From Algoriphagus aquimarinus (GTDB lineage Bacteria; Bacteroidota; Bacteroidia; Cytophagales; Cyclobacteriaceae): a DNA stretch of 64,000 nt. How positions within the stretch are numbered: position 1 is the first letter of the stretch; each line of letters starts with the position of its first letter. The position numbers and the translations under genes are program-made. The stretch lies in contig NZ_FOKK01000001.1 in NCBI RefSeq assembly GCF_900112005.1, positions 62,001 through 126,000 of the forward strand, read 5' to 3'. Of this stretch, positions 15,309 through 31,264 are shown piece after piece. Under the pieces are notes generated by a model. The model was not told the DNA's origin. It worked only from the letters and a program-made list of their open reading frames with translations, and ran no database searches.

Positions 15309-15514
15309 AGCCAGCTAATTGATTGAAATTACCTTCTATCCAGAATAAATATTTGGTTAATACAAACACATGGGTTAATATTGTGACATCACCGTGAATG
15401 AGCAAGTCAGCCCACTTTGACTTGAGTATTTCCTGCAGATCTTTTTTGCTCAGAAAATCATCCACGATCTCAAATACCGCATTTACTACATTTTATTTAT
15501 TTCATACCCTCTTT

Positions 15515-17323
15515 ATGTACAACATAGAAGAACTCAGAGTCAGGTTATTGTCTGAACTGAAGGAAATCGCTGAGGAGCTAGGTGTTAAAAGCCATAAATC
15601 TCTAAAGAAAGACGAACTCGTCTATGCAATCCTTGACCAGCAAGCTATCACCCCAGAGCAAGCCTTGCCAAAAAAGAAGCCTTCAGCAGCCACAGAGCCA
15701 GCTAAAGCACCGGAAAATTCAGCAGAAGCACCAAAGCCTGCTCCAGTAAAAGCTCCTGAAGAGCCAGAATACAAGCCAAAATTCAAGAGACAAAACGTAA
15801 CAGCGGTACCGGAAGCAACCGAAGCACCTGCTACTACTCCTGCTCCAGAATCAAAAAATACTGCAGAGGCTCCTAAGCCAAAAGAGAATAAACCGGACTG
15901 GAAAGCTAAAAAAGAAGCCCAACCAGAGAAAGTAGAAAGAAAGCCTTTACCAAAGTCTGAGCCTGTAGGCGAAGAGCCAAAGACCTTCAGACCAAGACGT
16001 AAAGTCTTTGAAGAAGCAGAAACTACTACAGAAGCTAAAAAGGAAGAAAAGCCAGCAAGTGCACCTGCGCAGACTCAAGCTAAACCTGAGCAAGAAGCAG
16101 AACTTCCAAGAAGAAGAAACTTCAAGTCACCCGATGAGGTGATGGCTCCAGCAGCTGAGACAGTTCCTCATTCCAATCGAAGACGACCAGGCGTAAATCC
16201 TCGTGAATTCGATGGAGTTATCGACAATGAAGGGGTTTTGGAAATGATGCAAGAAGGCTACGGCTTCCTTCGTTCATTGGACTACAATTACCTTGCTTCT
16301 CCAGATGATATCTATGTATCACCAAGTCAAGTAAAACTTTTCGGACTAAAAACCGGCGATCATATCAAAGGATCTATTCGTCCTCCTAAAGAAGGTGAAA
16401 AGTATTTTGCACTTTTGAAAATTGCTACCGTCAACGGTAAAACTACAGATGAAATCAGGGACCGTGTTCCTTTCGAATATCTAACTCCTCTTTTCCCAGA
16501 AGAAAGATTAAATCTATCTACCACAGGAGATAAATTCTCCACACGAGTAGTAGATCTATTTGCTCCTATAGGTAAAGGCCAAAGAGGCATGATCGTAGCT
16601 CAGCCAAAAACTGGTAAGACAGTATTGCTACAGCAGATCGCGAATGCGATTACAAAAAATCACCCTGAAGTTCACTTGATGATCTTACTGATCGATGAGC
16701 GACCTGAGGAAGTGACGGATATGGCTCGCTCGGTAAATGCAGAAGTGATTTCTTCTACATTCGATGAGACTGCCGACAGACACGTGAAAGTTTCTAATAT
16801 CGTTTTGGAAAAAGCAAAGCGCATGGTGGAAGTTGGTCATGATGTGGTAATCCTATTGGACTCTATCACTAGACTTGCCAGAGCACACAATACAGTGGTA
16901 CCAAGCTCAGGAAAGATCCTTTCTGGTGGTGTGGATGCTAATGCACTTCATAAGCCAAAGCGTTTCTTCGGTGCGGCTCGTAATGTAGAGAATGGTGGTT
17001 CATTGACTATCATCGCTACAGCCTTAGTAGAAACTGGTTCTAAAATGGATGAAGTGATCTTTGAAGAATTCAAAGGAACTGGTAACATGGAACTTGCGCT
17101 AGATCGTAAACTTGCCAACAGAAGAATCTATCCTTCTATCGATGTGCTTAACTCAGGTACTCGTCGTGAAGACCTATTGATGGATAAGGAAGAAATGCAA
17201 CGTGTGTGGATCCTTCGTAAGCTTATGAGTGACATGAACTCTCAGGAGTCTATGGAATTCTTGCTACAGCGTATGAAAGGAACTCGCGACAATGCTGAGT
17301 TCTTGATCAGCATGAATAGTTAA
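15515..17323 (+). CDS. rho: Transcription termination factor Rho with a long disordered insert
   Basis: Hexameric RNA helicase that ends transcription. The ATG at 15515 gives 602 residues; an upstream GTG-started extension is rejected because it lacks Rho similarity. Residues 1-47 form the N-terminal helix domain. About 48-230 are Pro/Ala/Glu/Lys/Arg-rich and predicted disordered. The RNA-binding domain follows with [15 protein letters not shown]. The ATPase core carries QPKTGKT (near 366) and [11 protein letters not shown]. Long inserts of this kind are known in Bacteroidota Rho, where one has been linked to phase separation. Confidence 0.96.
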
Positions 17324-26572: not shown

Positions 26573-26989
26573 TTACTCTTCTTTTAAAATATCTTCTAAA
26601 CTCTTGTTTTCCAGTATCTTAAGAGTCTCGTCTCTGACTTGGATCATCACCCGATTTATACCACAAACCGCCTCATTTTTACATTCATCGCATGGTTCAT
26701 AGTAATTCAAACTCACACAAGGAAGCATAGCAATCGGCCCATCAAGCAATCGAATCACCTTAGAAAGAGGGATGTCTTTAGGTTCTTTGATCAGATAATA
26801 CCCTCCACCTTTTCCTTTTTTACTTCCAAGCATTCCTGCTTTTTTCAGTTCAAGTAAGATGTTCTCCAAGAATTTATGAGAAATCCCATGCTCTTCGGCG
26901 ATCTCTTGGATCAGAACAGTTTTCTGATCTTTATGCTTACCTAGGTAGGTCAAGGCATGCAGGGCGTATTTTGTCTTTTTAGAAAGCAT
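26573..26989 (-). CDS. Rrf2-family transcriptional regulator
   Basis: 138 residues. Winged-helix start MLSKKTKYALHALTYLG, recognition region HGISHKFLENILLELKKAGML, and wing GKGGGYYL, all typical of Rrf2. Four Cys in a C-x8-C-x2-C-x5-C pattern (about 92-110) could hold an Fe-S cluster, as in several Rrf2 members. At the head of the sulfate reduction genes it probably controls them, like CymR-type regulators do for sulfur genes; this is inference from position. Palindromes sharing ACCCTA half-sites lie beside two promoters here. Confidence 0.92.
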   Translation of the reverse strand: MLSKKTKYALHALTYLGKHKDQKTVLIQEIAEEHGISHKFLENILLELKKAGMLGSKKGKGGGYYLIKEPKDIPLSKVIRLLDGPIAMLPCVSLNYYEPCDECKNEAVCGINRVMIQVRDETLKILENKSLEDILKEE

Positions 26990-27033: not shown

Positions 27034-27210
27034 GGCTTTAATATATAGGTTCTACCACGAATTAAAGGATGCCTTACAATGAAAATCTGGCCAGTAGTTG
27101 AAATCCCTTTATAGGGCGAAGTTATTAAGCCTTAAAATGCTCACAATTGTTTGTCCAATTGTATTTGACCCTAAAAACAATGTTTTCCATTAACTTAAGA
27201 GTACCACTAT

Positions 27211-27549
27211 TTATAACGAATCAACAGCAGGACAAGACCCAATCCCCATCTTAACCTTAGCTTTAGGGTCATAATCCCTGAAGAAATAAACGCAATTATC
27301 ATTTTCAATGAAATTAAGAGTAGCAAGGTTAGATCCAACTTCCGAAGAAAATCTTACTTGCAAGGTTCGAACTTTCCCCGTATCAAAATATGAAACATAC
27401 AAAATCTTCATTTCTATACCTCTCTCTTTAGCTATAGTTACATATTCACTTATCTGATCTTTGGTAGTATTCTTATCAATTTTAATTTCAAACTTGTTTG
27501 GAAATATATAAAGAATGGAAATATAGAATAACAACAGGATTTTAATCAT
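27211..27549 (-). CDS. Small exported protein, possibly related to the C-terminal domain of BlaR1-like proteins
   Basis: 112 residues with an N-terminal hydrophobic segment (about 2-16). The segment FEIKIDKNTTKDQISEYVTIAKERGI resembles the C-terminal alpha/beta repeat often seen in Bacteroidota M56/BlaR1-like proteins; this likeness is from memory and weak. Two Cys (near 85 and 106) could pair outside the cytoplasm. Its start overlaps the stop of the propeller lipoprotein gene by 4 nt, so they are coupled. Function unknown. Confidence 0.75.
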   Translation of the reverse strand: MIKILLLFYISILYIFPNKFEIKIDKNTTKDQISEYVTIAKERGIEMKILYVSYFDTGKVRTLQVRFSSEVGSNLATLNFIENDNCVYFFRDYDPKAKVKMGIGSCPAVDSL

Positions 27550-28685
27550 TTCAATTTATATCTTATTAAAACTGGATTTGAATTTTTATCTACAAACTCT
27601 TTTGACCGAAATATAACACTATTTTTATCCATTGAATTAATATTAGCAAACCACGATAGCGACTCTTCAGAATACCAACCTAATAAAAACCCACCAGAAA
27701 CAACTCTTGGCCAAGGCAAAACATCACTACTATTTTTAAGTTTTATTGGATCGACTATCGCTACATTATTATTTGCTACATTAATTGCTGCACATTTAAT
27801 TTTGTCTTTATCATAATAATTAAATAAAACATAATCATTAAAAGAAATTAAATTTGATAAACCCCAAGAAAAATCAGACTGTAAAATAGGTAATAATGAA
27901 TTTAAAGCAACATCAGGATAATCACTAAATCTAAATGTAGGATTTTTAAATGAAACTTTTAAATAATTAGCTTTTCCTATAGGACTGACATTATAAATAG
28001 TATCTCCTGTTAAACTCGCGAATAATAATTTATCAGAAGTTGTAAAAGTATGATCCATGGCTAGCCTAACATTTTGAGAATATTCAGGAATAGAAAAAGC
28101 ATCAAACTTACTTACTAGCTCAAAATTAACATTATACACAATAAAATCAAAAAGAAGCGAATCTGCTTGATTATTAATTCCTCGTTTATTAGAATGAAAA
28201 TAAATGTTATTCTCAAAATAAGCCACCTCAGCTGCTTTAAAAGGTAATTCATACATTTTCTCTACAGAAAGATCATTTTTTAACACAAAACAATTATTAA
28301 ACTTATCAAGAACAAGGAGTTTATCGCCTGTAAATTCAGAAACACTCTCAATATTATAATTCCTATATTCAAACTCAATAGATTCAATTGACCCTCTAAA
28401 TTTACCCGTCCCGTCAAATTTCTTTATTGATTTCATATTTGAAATGTCAGAATCAATAACAAAAAAATCACTCCCTATAGTTACAACATCCCTAATTGAA
28501 AGCACTAAACTTTCAAAACCATTATACTCTAATGGAATGATTTCTATGTCACTGGAATTTTCAAGTAACCAATTGTCAACAGAATTAACCTCAGACAGGT
28601 TTAATGAGAGTTCTTCTTTAGCTTCGTGATTACACCCTAGCACTATTAAAATAAATGGTAGGTATAGTATTTTAATTCTTTTCAT
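27546..28685 (-). CDS. 6-bladed beta-propeller lipoprotein
   Basis: About 379 residues from the ATG at 28685 (MKRIKI); a start nine codons earlier is possible. Signal peptide with lipobox IVLGC, Cys near residue 18. The body has repeated beta-strand blocks with Asp/Asn turns and segments such as FFVIDSDISNMKSIKKFDGTG, the style of Bacteroidota 6-bladed propeller lipoproteins, which often accompany small secreted peptides. A/T content is clearly higher than in flanking genes, suggesting acquisition. Coupled to the 112-aa gene downstream; preceded by a Cys-rich peptide gene. Confidence 0.82.
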   Translation of the reverse strand: MKRIKILYLPFILIVLGCNHEAKEELSLNLSEVNSVDNWLLENSSDIEIIPLEYNGFESLVLSIRDVVTIGSDFFVIDSDISNMKSIKKFDGTGKFRGSIESIEFEYRNYNIESVSEFTGDKLLVLDKFNNCFVLKNDLSVEKMYELPFKAAEVAYFENNIYFHSNKRGINNQADSLLFDFIVYNVNFELVSKFDAFSIPEYSQNVRLAMDHTFTTSDKLLFASLTGDTIYNVSPIGKANYLKVSFKNPTFRFSDYPDVALNSLLPILQSDFSWGLSNLISFNDYVLFNYYDKDKIKCAAINVANNNVAIVDPIKLKNSSDVLPWPRVVSGGFLLGWYSEESLSWFANINSMDKNSVIFRSKEFVDKNSNPVLIRYKLK

Positions 28686-28734
28686 TTTTATTAAATAACC
28701 CACAGCCAGCAAATATGCTGACTGTGGAAATTGA

Positions 28735-29004
28735 TTACTCTAAACCAGGGGCACTTATGCAACTGGCAGATCCCTCTCCTGACCATATATCTATATTACA
28801 ACATGAGTAATAACCTGTTCCACAAGTTGTTTCATAAGTAATCGTTGTTGTACCACCAGCTGGACCCGCTTGTACTGCAAACGTTTTTGAAACAGAACAT
28901 GATGTAGATCCAACTCCACCTGATTGACAATCTTCTAAGGCCCAAGAAATCTCAGGACTAAATAGTGTCAAACTTAACGCAAAAATTGCAATTCTTTTTT
29001 TCAT
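28735..29004 (-). CDS. Cys-rich secreted peptide precursor
   Basis: 89 residues. Classical signal peptide MKKRIAIFALSLTLFSPEIS with a likely cut after the Trp-Ala near residue 22. The mature part of about 67 residues is Gly/Ser/Thr-rich with six Cys, including an adjacent CC pair near 68-69. It recalls the short peptides (NVEALA-like) encoded next to propeller lipoproteins in Bacteroidota, though I do not see that exact motif. Same strand as the lipoprotein, 49 nt upstream of it. Confidence 0.78.
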   Translation of the reverse strand: MKKRIAIFALSLTLFSPEISWALEDCQSGGVGSTSCSVSKTFAVQAGPAGGTTTITYETTCGTGYYSCCNIDIWSGEGSASCISAPGLE

Positions 29005-29294
29005 TCTATTTATTTAATAAAGTTCAAACAGAACATACCGAACCTTTCGGCACATCATCAAATTAAAAATTACCGGTAAAAATAAATTGTGCTTAAACAT
29101 ACCCCCCCTTATTAATAAATCCAAATATTAGTTTGAATATTTTTTAGAAGATTAGTTGAAGTACTGATGATCAGATAATTTATTTTTAGTTCATAGAATA
29201 ATTACATTCACAACCATCTATATTTCAATTATTTATCTATCTTCAAATTATTAGTTTCAAACAACTAAAAAATTGATTTGAAATGCTTAAAATA
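29005..29294. other. Gene-free A/T-rich spacer between htpG and the peptide cassette
   Basis: About 290 nt before the htpG terminators. It shows a short hairpin (CCGAA/TTCGG, 29038-29050) in the likely leader of the peptide gene, a C-run near 29102, and otherwise low-complexity A/T sequence. No gene or TAnnTTTG promoter seen. Confidence 0.6.
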
Positions 29295-29325
29295 AAAAAA
29301 TCCCCGAATTTCTCGGGGATTTTTT
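29295..29325 (-). terminator. Second terminator downstream of htpG
   Basis: 13-bp stem (29295-29307 with 29313-29325) with a CCCC/GGGG core flanked by A/T runs, so it can work on both strands. Confidence 0.8.
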
Positions 29326-29333
29326 GGTAATCA

Positions 29334-29366
29334 AACTCTCCAAGGGTTCAGAACCCTTGGAGAGTT
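29334..29366 (-). terminator. First hairpin downstream of htpG
   Basis: 16-bp perfect stem (29334-29349 with 29351-29366) with a single central base, 12 nt after the htpG stop. It lacks its own U-run and stands in tandem with the next hairpin. Confidence 0.65.
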
Positions 29367-29377
29367 ACCTGTAGTTA

Positions 29378-31264
29378 TTAAAGCAATTCCACACTTCTCT
29401 TTACAAAGGCAGTCAAGTCTTTGCCTGTTAGCAAGCCTTGGGAAAGAAGAGCCAAATCAAATGACTGTTTAGCTATTTTGATCTTTTCTTCTTCGGTTTC
29501 TGCTTTCAGGACTTTGTCCACTGCAGGGTGATTTCCGTTGATGGCTACTTTGTAAGCATCTGGAAGTGAACCATAGAAGCCCATTCCTCCGCCGCCAGTT
29601 GCAGCCATTTCCTTCATTCTGCGCATGAATTCCTCCATAGTGATCGTCACAGGAAGTTCTTCTGGACTCAAGCCTTCCACTTCTACTGTGTACGTCTTGT
29701 TGTTGATCGCTTTGTCAAAGATTTCCTTCACTTCCTTGCTCTGATCTTCAGTGAGCAAGTTTGCGTAAGTCTCGTCCTTCTGGATCAACTTCTCAGCCAC
29801 ATCAGCATCCACACGCTTCAGCTGAGTTTTCTCCAGTTTGGATTCCAAGTTTTGGATAAAGTGACTATCAATCGGTGAATCCATCACCAAGACATCGTAG
29901 TCTTTCTTATTGGCAGATTGAATAAAACTATCCTGCTTATCCAAATCAGTTGCATATAAGATGACCGCTTGATCATTCTTATCTGTTTGGTTCGGCTTTA
30001 TTTTAGACTGGTATTCTTCGATAGTGAAGAACTCGCCATTGGTATTCTTAAGCAAAGCGAAGTCTTTACCTTTTTCGTAGAATTTGTCCTCGGAGATCAT
30101 TCCGTATTTCACGAAAAGTCCAACATCACCCCATTTCTGCTCGTATGCTTTTCTGTCTTTTTTGTAAAGCTCAGCAAGCTTATCCGCTACTTTCTTGGTG
30201 ATGTAAGAATTGATTTTCTTCACGTTAGAATCCGCCTGTAGGAAGCTTCTAGATACGTTGAGAGGAATGTCCGGAGAGTCAATTACTCCATGAAGCAACA
30301 TCAAGAACTCAGGAACGATGTCTTTCACTTCGTCCGTGATAAATACCTGACGACTGTAAAGCTTGATCTTATTTCGCTGAAGCTCAAATTCGTTTTTCAC
30401 CTTCGGGAAATACAAAACTCCTGTCAAGTTGAACGGATAATCCACGTTCAGGTGAATCCAGAAGAGTGGATCCTCAGACATTGGATACAGCTCCTTATAG
30501 AATTTCAAGTAATCTTCATCTGTCAACTCACCTGGAGACTTAGTCCAGATCGGAGCAGTCGTGTTGATGAAATTGTCAACTTCTACAGACTTCCATTTTT
30601 TCTCATCTTTCTCATCAACTCCATCTTCTACAGATTCAGTTTTTGTACCAAACTTGATCGGAACTGGAAGGAATTTAGCGTATTTGTCAAGGATTCCCTG
30701 AAGCTTCCATTTATCAAGGAATTCTTCAGAATCGCTATTGACATGAAGGATAATAGTCGTTCCACGCTCCTGTCTAGTTCCTTCAGTGATCTCAAAAGAA
30801 GTAGAACCATCACAAGTCCATTTAGCAGCTTCCGCTCCTTCTTGGTATGAAAGTGTATTGATTTCTACGGTGTCAGCGACCATGAAAGCCGAGTAGAAAC
30901 CAAGGCCGAACTTACCGATGATCTCATTGGCATCTTTGGCGTCTTTGAATTTCTCTACAAATTCCTCCGCTCCTGAGAAAGCCACTTGATTAATGTACTT
31001 TTTGATTTCCTCAGCAGTCATCCCTAGACCGTGATCAGAGATGGTGATGGTTTTCTTTTCAGCATCAAAACTTACTTCCACCGTAGTGTCACCAAGTTCG
31101 CCTGTGTACTGACCTAATGTCGCTAAACGCTTGATTTTTTGAGTCGCATCGACTGCGTTAGAAACAAGTTCTCTTAGAAAAATCTCGTTATCAGAATAGA
31201 GAAACTTCTTGATAATCGGGAAAATGTTCTCGGTATGGATCGAGATCGTGCCTTTTTCCTGCAT
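29378..31264 (-). CDS. htpG: Molecular chaperone HtpG (Hsp90)
   Basis: ATP-dependent chaperone of the cytoplasm. 628 residues in the usual order: N-terminal GHKL ATPase with ELVSNAVDATQKI near 34-46, SDHGLGMT near 77, and GKFGLGFYSAFMV near 116-128; middle domain; C-terminal dimerisation domain. The charged linker after the ATPase domain is short, as in other bacterial members. Single-gene unit with two downstream hairpins. No CIRCE-like element seen upstream. Confidence 0.96.
   Translation of the reverse strand: MQEKGTISIHTENIFPIIKKFLYSDNEIFLRELVSNAVDATQKIKRLATLGQYTGELGDTTVEVSFDAEKKTITISDHGLGMTAEEIKKYINQVAFSGAEEFVEKFKDAKDANEIIGKFGLGFYSAFMVADTVEINTLSYQEGAEAAKWTCDGSTSFEITEGTRQERGTTIILHVNSDSEEFLDKWKLQGILDKYAKFLPVPIKFGTKTESVEDGVDEKDEKKWKSVEVDNFINTTAPIWTKSPGELTDEDYLKFYKELYPMSEDPLFWIHLNVDYPFNLTGVLYFPKVKNEFELQRNKIKLYSRQVFITDEVKDIVPEFLMLLHGVIDSPDIPLNVSRSFLQADSNVKKINSYITKKVADKLAELYKKDRKAYEQKWGDVGLFVKYGMISEDKFYEKGKDFALLKNTNGEFFTIEEYQSKIKPNQTDKNDQAVILYATDLDKQDSFIQSANKKDYDVLVMDSPIDSHFIQNLESKLEKTQLKRVDADVAEKLIQKDETYANLLTEDQSKEVKEIFDKAINNKTYTVEVEGLSPEELPVTITMEEFMRRMKEMAATGGGGMGFYGSLPDAYKVAINGNHPAVDKVLKAETEEEKIKIAKQSFDLALLSQGLLTGKDLTAFVKRSVELL

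What the first reader, a model, noticed from the sequence alone, without database searches (positions are those of the whole stretch)
27211..29004. AT-rich cassette: Cys-rich secreted peptide, propeller lipoprotein and small exported protein
An 89-aa precursor with six Cys in its mature part is followed by a lipoprotein with a 6-bladed propeller look and a coupled 112-aa exported protein. The whole stretch is clearly richer in A/T than its neighbours. Related peptide/propeller pairs occur in Bacteroidota with no known role. A secreted peptide with a surface or periplasmic binding partner is a reasonable idea, for signalling or competition.
Basis: partly seen in the sequence, partly recalled or inferred. 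Interest (0 to 1): 0.55.

Follow-up and report, generated by a model that had tools for sequence, protein, structure and literature searches.

The report
Swappable secreted-peptide and propeller gene cassette
Three small genes for exported proteins (a cysteine-rich peptide, a propeller-type lipoprotein and a helper) sit as one interchangeable cassette at a spot where related bacteria carry other peptide/propeller cassettes or nothing, which looks like a gene set for competing with or recognising close relatives, though nobody has tested it.

Summary
In detail: peptide (89 aa, six Cys), propeller lipoprotein (379 aa) and 112-aa exported protein, minus strand, 27211-29004, 30.3% G+C against at least 36.0% in equal stretches elsewhere in the window. 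A complete copy lies at another site in same-genus G689, with pN/pS 0.25-0.38 for the three genes. The peptide belongs to an unnamed Cys-domain family. Of 16 loci with an intact standalone peptide, 15 also carry a propeller lipoprotein; several propellers survive without the peptide. New here: the hsp90-rrf2 interval is a swap site. In 41 same-genus genomes it is empty in 16, occupied in 22, undetermined in 3, while rrf2-cysH is 323-331 bp in 25 of 25 measured. Occupants are mostly different exported-peptide/propeller pairs (19 peptides in 15 clusters, 23 propeller-type lipoproteins in 7); five genomes hold hsp90 and/or rrf2 fragments inside their arrays. Best reading: exported effector peptide plus protective or binding lipoprotein, exchanged by recombination in the flanking genes. 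Function and secretion route are untested.

The parts
28735..29004 (-). 89-aa precursor: Sec-type leader (by eye) plus mature domain with six Cys (C26, C36, C61, C68, C69, C82)
   Evidence: motif family; AF2 model with four strands, block pLDDT 87-95 over residues 31-80; pN/pS 0.38 against the G689 copy
27546..28685 (-). 379-aa lipoprotein of the PF17170-type 6-bladed beta-propeller group
   Evidence: relatives L004, L005, L008, L014 match PF17170 above cut-off, the window protein itself does not; profile A2 covers residues 14-291 of solved chain 4raa, E 5.6e-7; VLGC by pattern
27211..27549 (-). 112-aa exported protein, 4-nt overlap with the lipoprotein gene
   Evidence: homologues in the same place in G128, G070 and G689; weaker relatives as small exported proteins and as N-terminal part of ~400-aa proteins; AF2 mean pLDDT 85, strand-helix-five strands after the leader
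29005..29140 (-). upstream stretch conserved with the G689 copy (possible promoter/operator region)
   Evidence: blastn 69% over window 29140-28760; alignment; the Bacteroidota promoter pattern tried has no match here
27048..29377 (.). inserted segment: stands in place of about 61 bp between rrf2 and hsp90 in the empty site of G227 (L094)
29378..31264 (-). hsp90 (htpG) flank of the swap site; named by eye from its sequence
26573..26989 (-). Rrf2-type regulator flank of the swap site; named by eye from its sequence

Best explanation
The three genes are one allele of a swappable cassette. Shown: the cassette sits in the hsp90-rrf2 interval, which in the same genus is empty or filled with other cassettes, mostly an exported peptide plus a propeller-type lipoprotein; some stacked cassettes are separated by pieces of the flanking genes, which suggests that alleles join and swap by recombination there. 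Inferred: the peptide is exported by Sec, folds as a disulfide-bonded beta domain and leaves the cell (or sits on its surface) as an effector acting on close relatives; the lipoprotein is its cognate protective or binding partner in the envelope, kept when the peptide is lost; the 112-aa exported protein (in other cassettes a ~235-aa, DUF3738-like protein) helps folding, display or transport. It would work like an effector-immunity module with a propeller lipoprotein as the immunity part. I hold the anatomy and the swap site at about 95% and the effector/protector reading at about 45%.
For: Empty sites, insert borders and the length-invariant neighbouring interval. Other peptide/propeller cassettes at the same site: 19 listed peptides fall into 15 clusters. 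Fragments of hsp90 and rrf2 between cassettes in L129, L135, L139, of rrf2 in L165 and of hsp90 in the G701 array. In G725 the rrf2-side propeller, 84% identical to a paired one of G684, has no peptide; about 300 bp upstream of it begins a scar. Propellers without a usable peptide: G070, G038, G169 C18, G273 C18, G267, G725, G198 (second cassette), G130. The same site also carries lipoproteins with odd C-termini next to small membrane-type ORFs (by eye) or an Rce1-like protease, and such small ORFs occur without the lipoprotein in L116, L138 and L130. Purifying selection on the peptide.
Against: No activity, secretion or binding data. The peptide scaffold is conserved across Bacteroidota and occurs as part of longer proteins, mostly at their C-terminus, with no propeller hit in the held stretch (21 of 21 such loci), once before what looks by eye like a T9SS tail (L045): this suits a structural or binding domain as well as a toxin. 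No known toxin, immunity or transport family was hit by the cassette proteins or the peptide relatives above chance level, nor by the odd lipoproteins of the site (the neighbouring Rce1-like protease is the one family match there). No route across the outer membrane is encoded in the cassette. Propellers of these families also stand outside such cassettes (G234; that they are common is recalled). The selection estimate rests on one genome pair.
Confidence: 0.45

Rival explanations
1. Self-recognition or signalling: the peptide is a secreted ligand and the lipoprotein its surface or periplasmic receptor; diversity comes from selection for specificity, not killing.
For: Small regulators precede the peptide in some relatives: Crp-like in G114 (Pfam cNMP_binding) and G273, LuxR-HTH-like in G384 and G561, HTH-like in G118 (by eye). 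Confident fold and purifying selection. One propeller cluster goes with several peptide types.
Against: No regulator in the window cassette, and none seen by eye in the 22 occupied sites (a LytTR-like gene only in the undetermined L119). Propellers without peptide are frequent, less expected for a receptor without its ligand.
Confidence: 0.2
2. Envelope or capture module: the peptide domain is a surface-binding or structural element held by the propeller lipoprotein (for a nutrient, metal or matrix), and the interval is merely a permissive site that gathers AT-rich exported genes.
For: Same domain built into lipoproteins and a protein with an apparent T9SS tail; one such protein lies next to a TlpA-like protein with a part matching the third-gene profile (L036, E 1.3e-6); propellers are general binding scaffolds (recalled).
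Against: 18 of 22 occupied sites hold propeller-type lipoproteins (14 with a Pfam-linked one), not a random sample of genes; peptide diversity at one site in one genus.
Confidence: 0.25
3. Relic of a mobile element with cargo of no use to the host.
For: Sporadic presence: peptide family in 4 of 72 genus genomes; AT-rich.
Against: No transposase-like ORF and no clear terminal repeat in the insert; pN/pS 0.25-0.38 for the three genes in one pair; the scars consist of flanking core genes.
Confidence: 0.05

Closest known systems
Vibrio cholerae T6SS effector-immunity modules and orphan immunity arrays (PMC5361080; abstract and passages seen)
   Same: Alternative modules at one locus, successive addition, loss of the old effector with retention of its partner, a role for homologous and homology-facilitated recombination
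   Different: No T6SS gene in the cassette; Sec-type exported peptides and lipoproteins; killing not shown here
Bacteroidetocins (PMC6671954; passages seen)
   Same: Small Cys-containing exported peptides of Bacteroidota
   Different: Bacteroidetocins have a 15-aa double-glycine leader, four Cys, a thiol oxidoreductase gene and no immunity protein; here a Sec-type leader, six Cys and a propeller lipoprotein
PF17170 6-bladed propeller lipoproteins beside Cys-rich peptides (NVEALA-type pairs, recalled)
   Same: Propeller family and the pairing with a small exported Cys-rich peptide
   Different: The peptide matches no such Pfam or NCBIfam family; the term NVEALA gave 0 papers and I found no account of the swap site in searches
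Lipoprotein immunity of lantibiotic producers (LanI type; recalled, not tested)
   Same: Idea of a membrane-anchored lipoprotein that binds and neutralises the cell's own exported peptide
   Different: Gram-positive, unrelated protein, modified peptide (all recalled)

Membership tests
PF17170 6-bladed beta-propeller lipoproteins | Profile match above the curated cut-off | tested here: inconclusive
   Window protein: no PF17170 match at E<=1. Relatives at 28-31% identity match it: L004 90.3 bits, L005 56.4, cut-off 22.9; L003 (37%) and L006 do not. hhalign of the swap-site cluster with A2 gives 99.9%, but both hold the window protein
PF17170 6-bladed beta-propeller lipoproteins | Lipoprotein signal | tested here: met
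   VLGC ending at residue 18, by pattern only
NVEALA-type peptides | Family profile match or NVEALA motif | tested here: not met
   No such match for the window peptide or 10 relatives in Pfam or NCBIfam at E<=1; motif absent from the sequence. That these libraries hold the family is recalled
Bacteroidetocins | Double-glycine leader | tested here: not met
   Leader is a hydrophobic Sec-type one by eye; criterion from passages of PMC6671954
Effector-immunity module (as a working kind) | Locus with alternative modules and retained orphan partners | tested here: met
Effector-immunity module (as a working kind) | Toxicity of the effector and protection by the partner | not testable with these tools
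   needs experiments
DUF3738 (third gene of other cassettes) | Profile match above cut-off | tested here: inconclusive
   L076 protein 21.9 bits against cut-off 22.0 over 19-187/190; L065 13.9; the other eight tested: none. The window's 112-aa protein: none
Shiga toxin Stx1 B subunit (weak NCBIfam listing) | Score above curated cut-off | tested here: not met
   16 bits against 175, residues 3-47, about half of it the leader; only 1 of 11 family members listed: chance

The most novel reading that the evidence does not exclude
Bacteroidota carry an undescribed class of antagonism modules: Sec-exported, disulfide-rich effector peptides of many unrelated families, each neutralised by its own 6-bladed-propeller lipoprotein, stored as alleles at dedicated chromosomal swap sites (here hsp90-rrf2) and exchanged by recombination in the flanking genes, with orphan propellers giving protection against displaced effectors.
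Probability: 0.35. Interest if true: 0.85.

Novelty: new variant of a known kind. Interest (0 to 1): 0.62.

Why it matters
Peptide/propeller pairs have, as far as I know, no known role. A single site at which sister species carry different pairs, bear scars of exchange and keep the lipoprotein after losing the peptide makes the role directly testable: strains with, without and with orphan copies are natural test pairs. If the effector/protector reading is right, a large family of lipoproteins annotated only as propellers gains a function, and a new source of narrow-spectrum peptides opens.

Tried and rejected
Known peptide family: none in Pfam or NCBIfam; weak Stx1 B-subunit, Sushi, LIC11742 and BimD listings, each for one member, are taken as chance.

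Known fold for the peptide: Foldseek found nothing at E<=0.001, VIA-align best Z 2.2 (9btq); this does not show a new fold. Foldseek likewise found nothing at E<=0.001 for the 112-aa model.

The 112-aa protein as a C-terminal domain of M56/BlaR1 proteins (a recalled idea): profile A3 gave no support in the three M56 proteins of the own genome. A 120-aa neighbour in L055 looked similar by eye but hhalign gave 0.9% probability: dropped.

Plasmid carriage of the propeller: no match. Bacteroidota promoter pattern: 3 matches in the window against 3.8 in shuffles, none upstream of the peptide. Mobile-element signatures: none seen.

Propeller status of the swap-site lipoproteins: 18 of 23 fall in clusters with a Pfam member (PF17170, PF15869, PF13970); that PF13970 (DUF4221) is a propeller is recalled. 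G214/G701c have 93% hhalign probability with A2 over 137 columns; G293, G701a and G701b stay unassigned. Of the 15 propellers beside standalone peptides, 5 are rows of profile A2 itself, 10 were found by it.

flags a stop in the G689 peptide; reading the frame showed it is the natural stop.

Rows left out: of 72 genus genomes, searched 60; 7 of these had only a distant Rrf2 (best hit 56-59% identity) and 12 none; these 19 were not examined. Of the 41 used, L119 and L131 run to contig ends with other genes and L169 holds 292 bp: undetermined. The rrf2-cysH control used the 25 loci given. The peptide list for the swap site leaves out a second, similar 94-aa ORF in G701. Six weak hits (E 0.001-0.01) and G239 were not followed; G169 C19 has a peptide-like frame without start codon beside a propeller and is not counted as intact.

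Literature: 9 searches. NVEALA, DUF4221 and 'TolB-like 6-blade propeller' gave 0 papers each; those on propeller lipoproteins with peptides or bacteriocins and on the locus gave nothing on this system (listings and abstract openings seen). PMC10434189 names one 6-bladed propeller gene (BT0664) in an iron-response table (one passage). PMC12204202 was not opened.

Full report
Observation. The stretch is 30.3% G+C against 40.0% for the window; outside it no equal-length stretch is below 36.0%. The peptide has six Cys after its leader. The window lipoprotein has no PF17170 match, but four relatives do (L004, L005, L008, L014; of six tested, L003 and L006 do not), and the family profile covers a solved exported protein, 4raa (E 5.6e-7).

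Homologues. Each gene has one copy in its genome. In 295 sampled genomes of the family the lipoprotein query hit 8 and the peptide profile 14, weak and fused forms included. The complete triad occurs in G128. In the whole genus (72 genomes) the peptide family occurs in 4: the window genome, G689, G701 and G273. G689 carries a full triad at another chromosomal site, with 62%, 56% and 65% identity and pN/pS 0.38, 0.35 and 0.25 for peptide, lipoprotein and third protein (dS saturated for the last two). About 135 bp upstream of the peptide are conserved too. G701 has peptide, propeller and the other type of third gene, at a site other than hsp90-rrf2.

The peptide family. Members share C-x3-GG-x-G-x3-C, then C-x2-G-x-Y-x-CC and a last Cys, with exceptions. 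One scan of named genomes gave 29 loci in Balneolaceae, Flavobacteriaceae, Saprospiraceae, Chitinophagaceae, Cyclobacteriaceae, Muribaculaceae and others (MAG titles such as Phycisphaerales, Acidobacteria and Clostridium may be binning errors). There are two architectures. Intact standalone forms: 16 loci in all (window, G128, G192, G114, G056, G118, G237, G384, G561, G701, G689, L043, L054, L064, L067, L046). Of these, 15 have a propeller lipoprotein on the same strand close by; L046 does not. L046 and L054 show no leader from their first ATG. Domain inside longer proteins, mostly at the C-terminus: 21 of the 29 loci, none with a propeller hit in the held stretch. AlphaFold2 gives four strands, with block pLDDT 87-95 over residues 31-80. 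In G237 the first Cys and the first of the CC pair are missing together, which suggests, from one case, that they bond. No Pfam or NCBIfam family matched above chance level.

Third gene. The window type also occurs in G128, G070 and G689. Several other cassettes have a ~230-250-aa exported protein; one member reaches 21.9 bits for DUF3738 against a cut-off of 22.0.

Peptide loss. Propeller intact but peptide absent: G070, G038. Peptide interrupted: G169 C18, together with the third gene, and G273 C18, a TGA where relatives have a Cys.

The swap site. Searching 60 of the 72 genus genomes with the neighbouring Rrf2 gene gave 41 with a close orthologue, the window's included. I read the hsp90 side of all 41 as far as the contigs or the fetched stretches go. 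The hsp90-rrf2 gap is 104-316 bp in 16, the site is occupied in 22 including the window, and undetermined in 3. The interval on the other side of rrf2, to cysH, is 323-331 bp in all 25 loci measured. In the window the insert runs from about 27048 to 29377 and stands in place of about 61 bp of the empty site of G227.

What the other occupants are. 18 of the 22 occupied sites hold one or more propeller-type lipoproteins, 14 of them one from a Pfam-linked cluster; the 18 include the window and a partial gene at a contig end (L167, by eye). The other four are L114, L116, L117 and L138. I listed 23 such lipoproteins: 10 in the PF17170 cluster with the window, 3 TolB_like, 5 DUF4221, 5 without Pfam evidence. 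19 small ORFs with a leader by eye lie next to and upstream of them, in 15 sequence clusters; 18 of 19 have at least 2 Cys beyond residue 20. Where propellers are 51-59% identical (G689, G702, G707) the peptides do not align by BLAST at E 1e-3. The peptide and propeller genes listed run in the direction of hsp90 and rrf2; of the ORFs of at least 48 aa in the occupied sites only a few short ones, probably not genes, run the other way (L129 146 aa, L137 53 aa, two of 53 aa in L165). Other sets are proteins with unusual C-termini followed by 56-82-aa membrane-type ORFs (L117, L125, L129, L137; by eye) or by an Rce1-like protease (L114 and, by eye, the G701 array); the small ORFs also occur alone (L116, L138) or beside a propeller only (L130).

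Exchange scars. Between stacked cassettes lie about 175 bp of the hsp90 3' end followed by about 95-130 bp of the rrf2 5' end in L129, L135 and L139. G707 (L165) has two further rrf2 fragments, one between cassettes and one near the contig end, and G701 an hsp90 fragment inside an array that, from the coordinates, spans about 9.6 kb. L116, L117 and L119 hold 24-39 bp of the hsp90 end. The hsp90-then-rrf2 order is what two alleles of the site joined end to end would leave. In G725 the rrf2-side propeller has no peptide, and a scar begins about 300 bp upstream of it, while its 84%-identical relative in G684 has a peptide there. In G198 the second peptide is shifted out of frame at its end while its propeller is intact; G267 and G130 also have propellers without a peptide; the G706 contig ends within what looks like the peptide gene. 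The window site itself has no such scar.

Reading. The pattern resembles the one described for V. cholerae effector-immunity arrays, where new modules displace old effectors and leave their immunity genes (PMC5361080, abstract and passages). By analogy the peptide is the effector and the propeller its protector. This is inference. The conserved scaffold, its use inside longer proteins and the lack of a visible outer-membrane exit speak for caution, and a ligand/receptor or capture role remains possible.

Taxonomy. No tool names the window's organism. Two genomes of its family have contigs of the same length as named records: Marinoscillum furvescens (180,581) and a Cyclobacteriaceae MAG (3,067), so the family is most likely Cyclobacteriaceae.

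Noticed in passing
L114 569-2239; L117 6547-7274; L125 735-1811; L129 4100-4998; L137 2169-3129: At the same hsp90-rrf2 site other genomes carry precursor-like genes with Gly-rich, cationic or Cys-containing C-termini followed by a small membrane-type ORF or an Rce1-like protease: bacteriocin-like sets, matching no family apart from the protease.
   Followed up: partly
L045 3581-4393: In Flavobacterium urocaniciphilum the Cys domain is followed by what looks, by eye, like a type 9 secretion sorting tail, which would put the domain on the cell surface.
   Followed up: no
L062 1467-2099: The two halves of the Cys domain appear in swapped order in a protein from a MAG titled Phycisphaerales (same isolate series as the Cyclobacteriaceae MAG of L065, so binning is doubtful).
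   Followed up: no
L043 2190-8187; L073 1097-1315; L075 2151-4187: Further small exported Cys peptides of other sequence types lie beside propeller or propeller-like lipoproteins, in L075 with a thioredoxin-like gene (by eye): the pairing is wider than one peptide family.
   Followed up: partly
L151-L157, L159 and L161: A domain related to the 112-aa protein lies in open frames of 387-465 aa in one other genus (g56); in the three read (L151, L152, L155) it is N-terminal to a barrel-like part.
   Followed up: partly
27208-27226: The end of the 112-aa gene resembles, over about 18 bp, the stretch just before hsp90 in the empty site of L094; possible microhomology at the insertion, not tested.
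   Followed up: no
15501-16000: AT skew of 0.41, the strongest in the window table.
   Followed up: no
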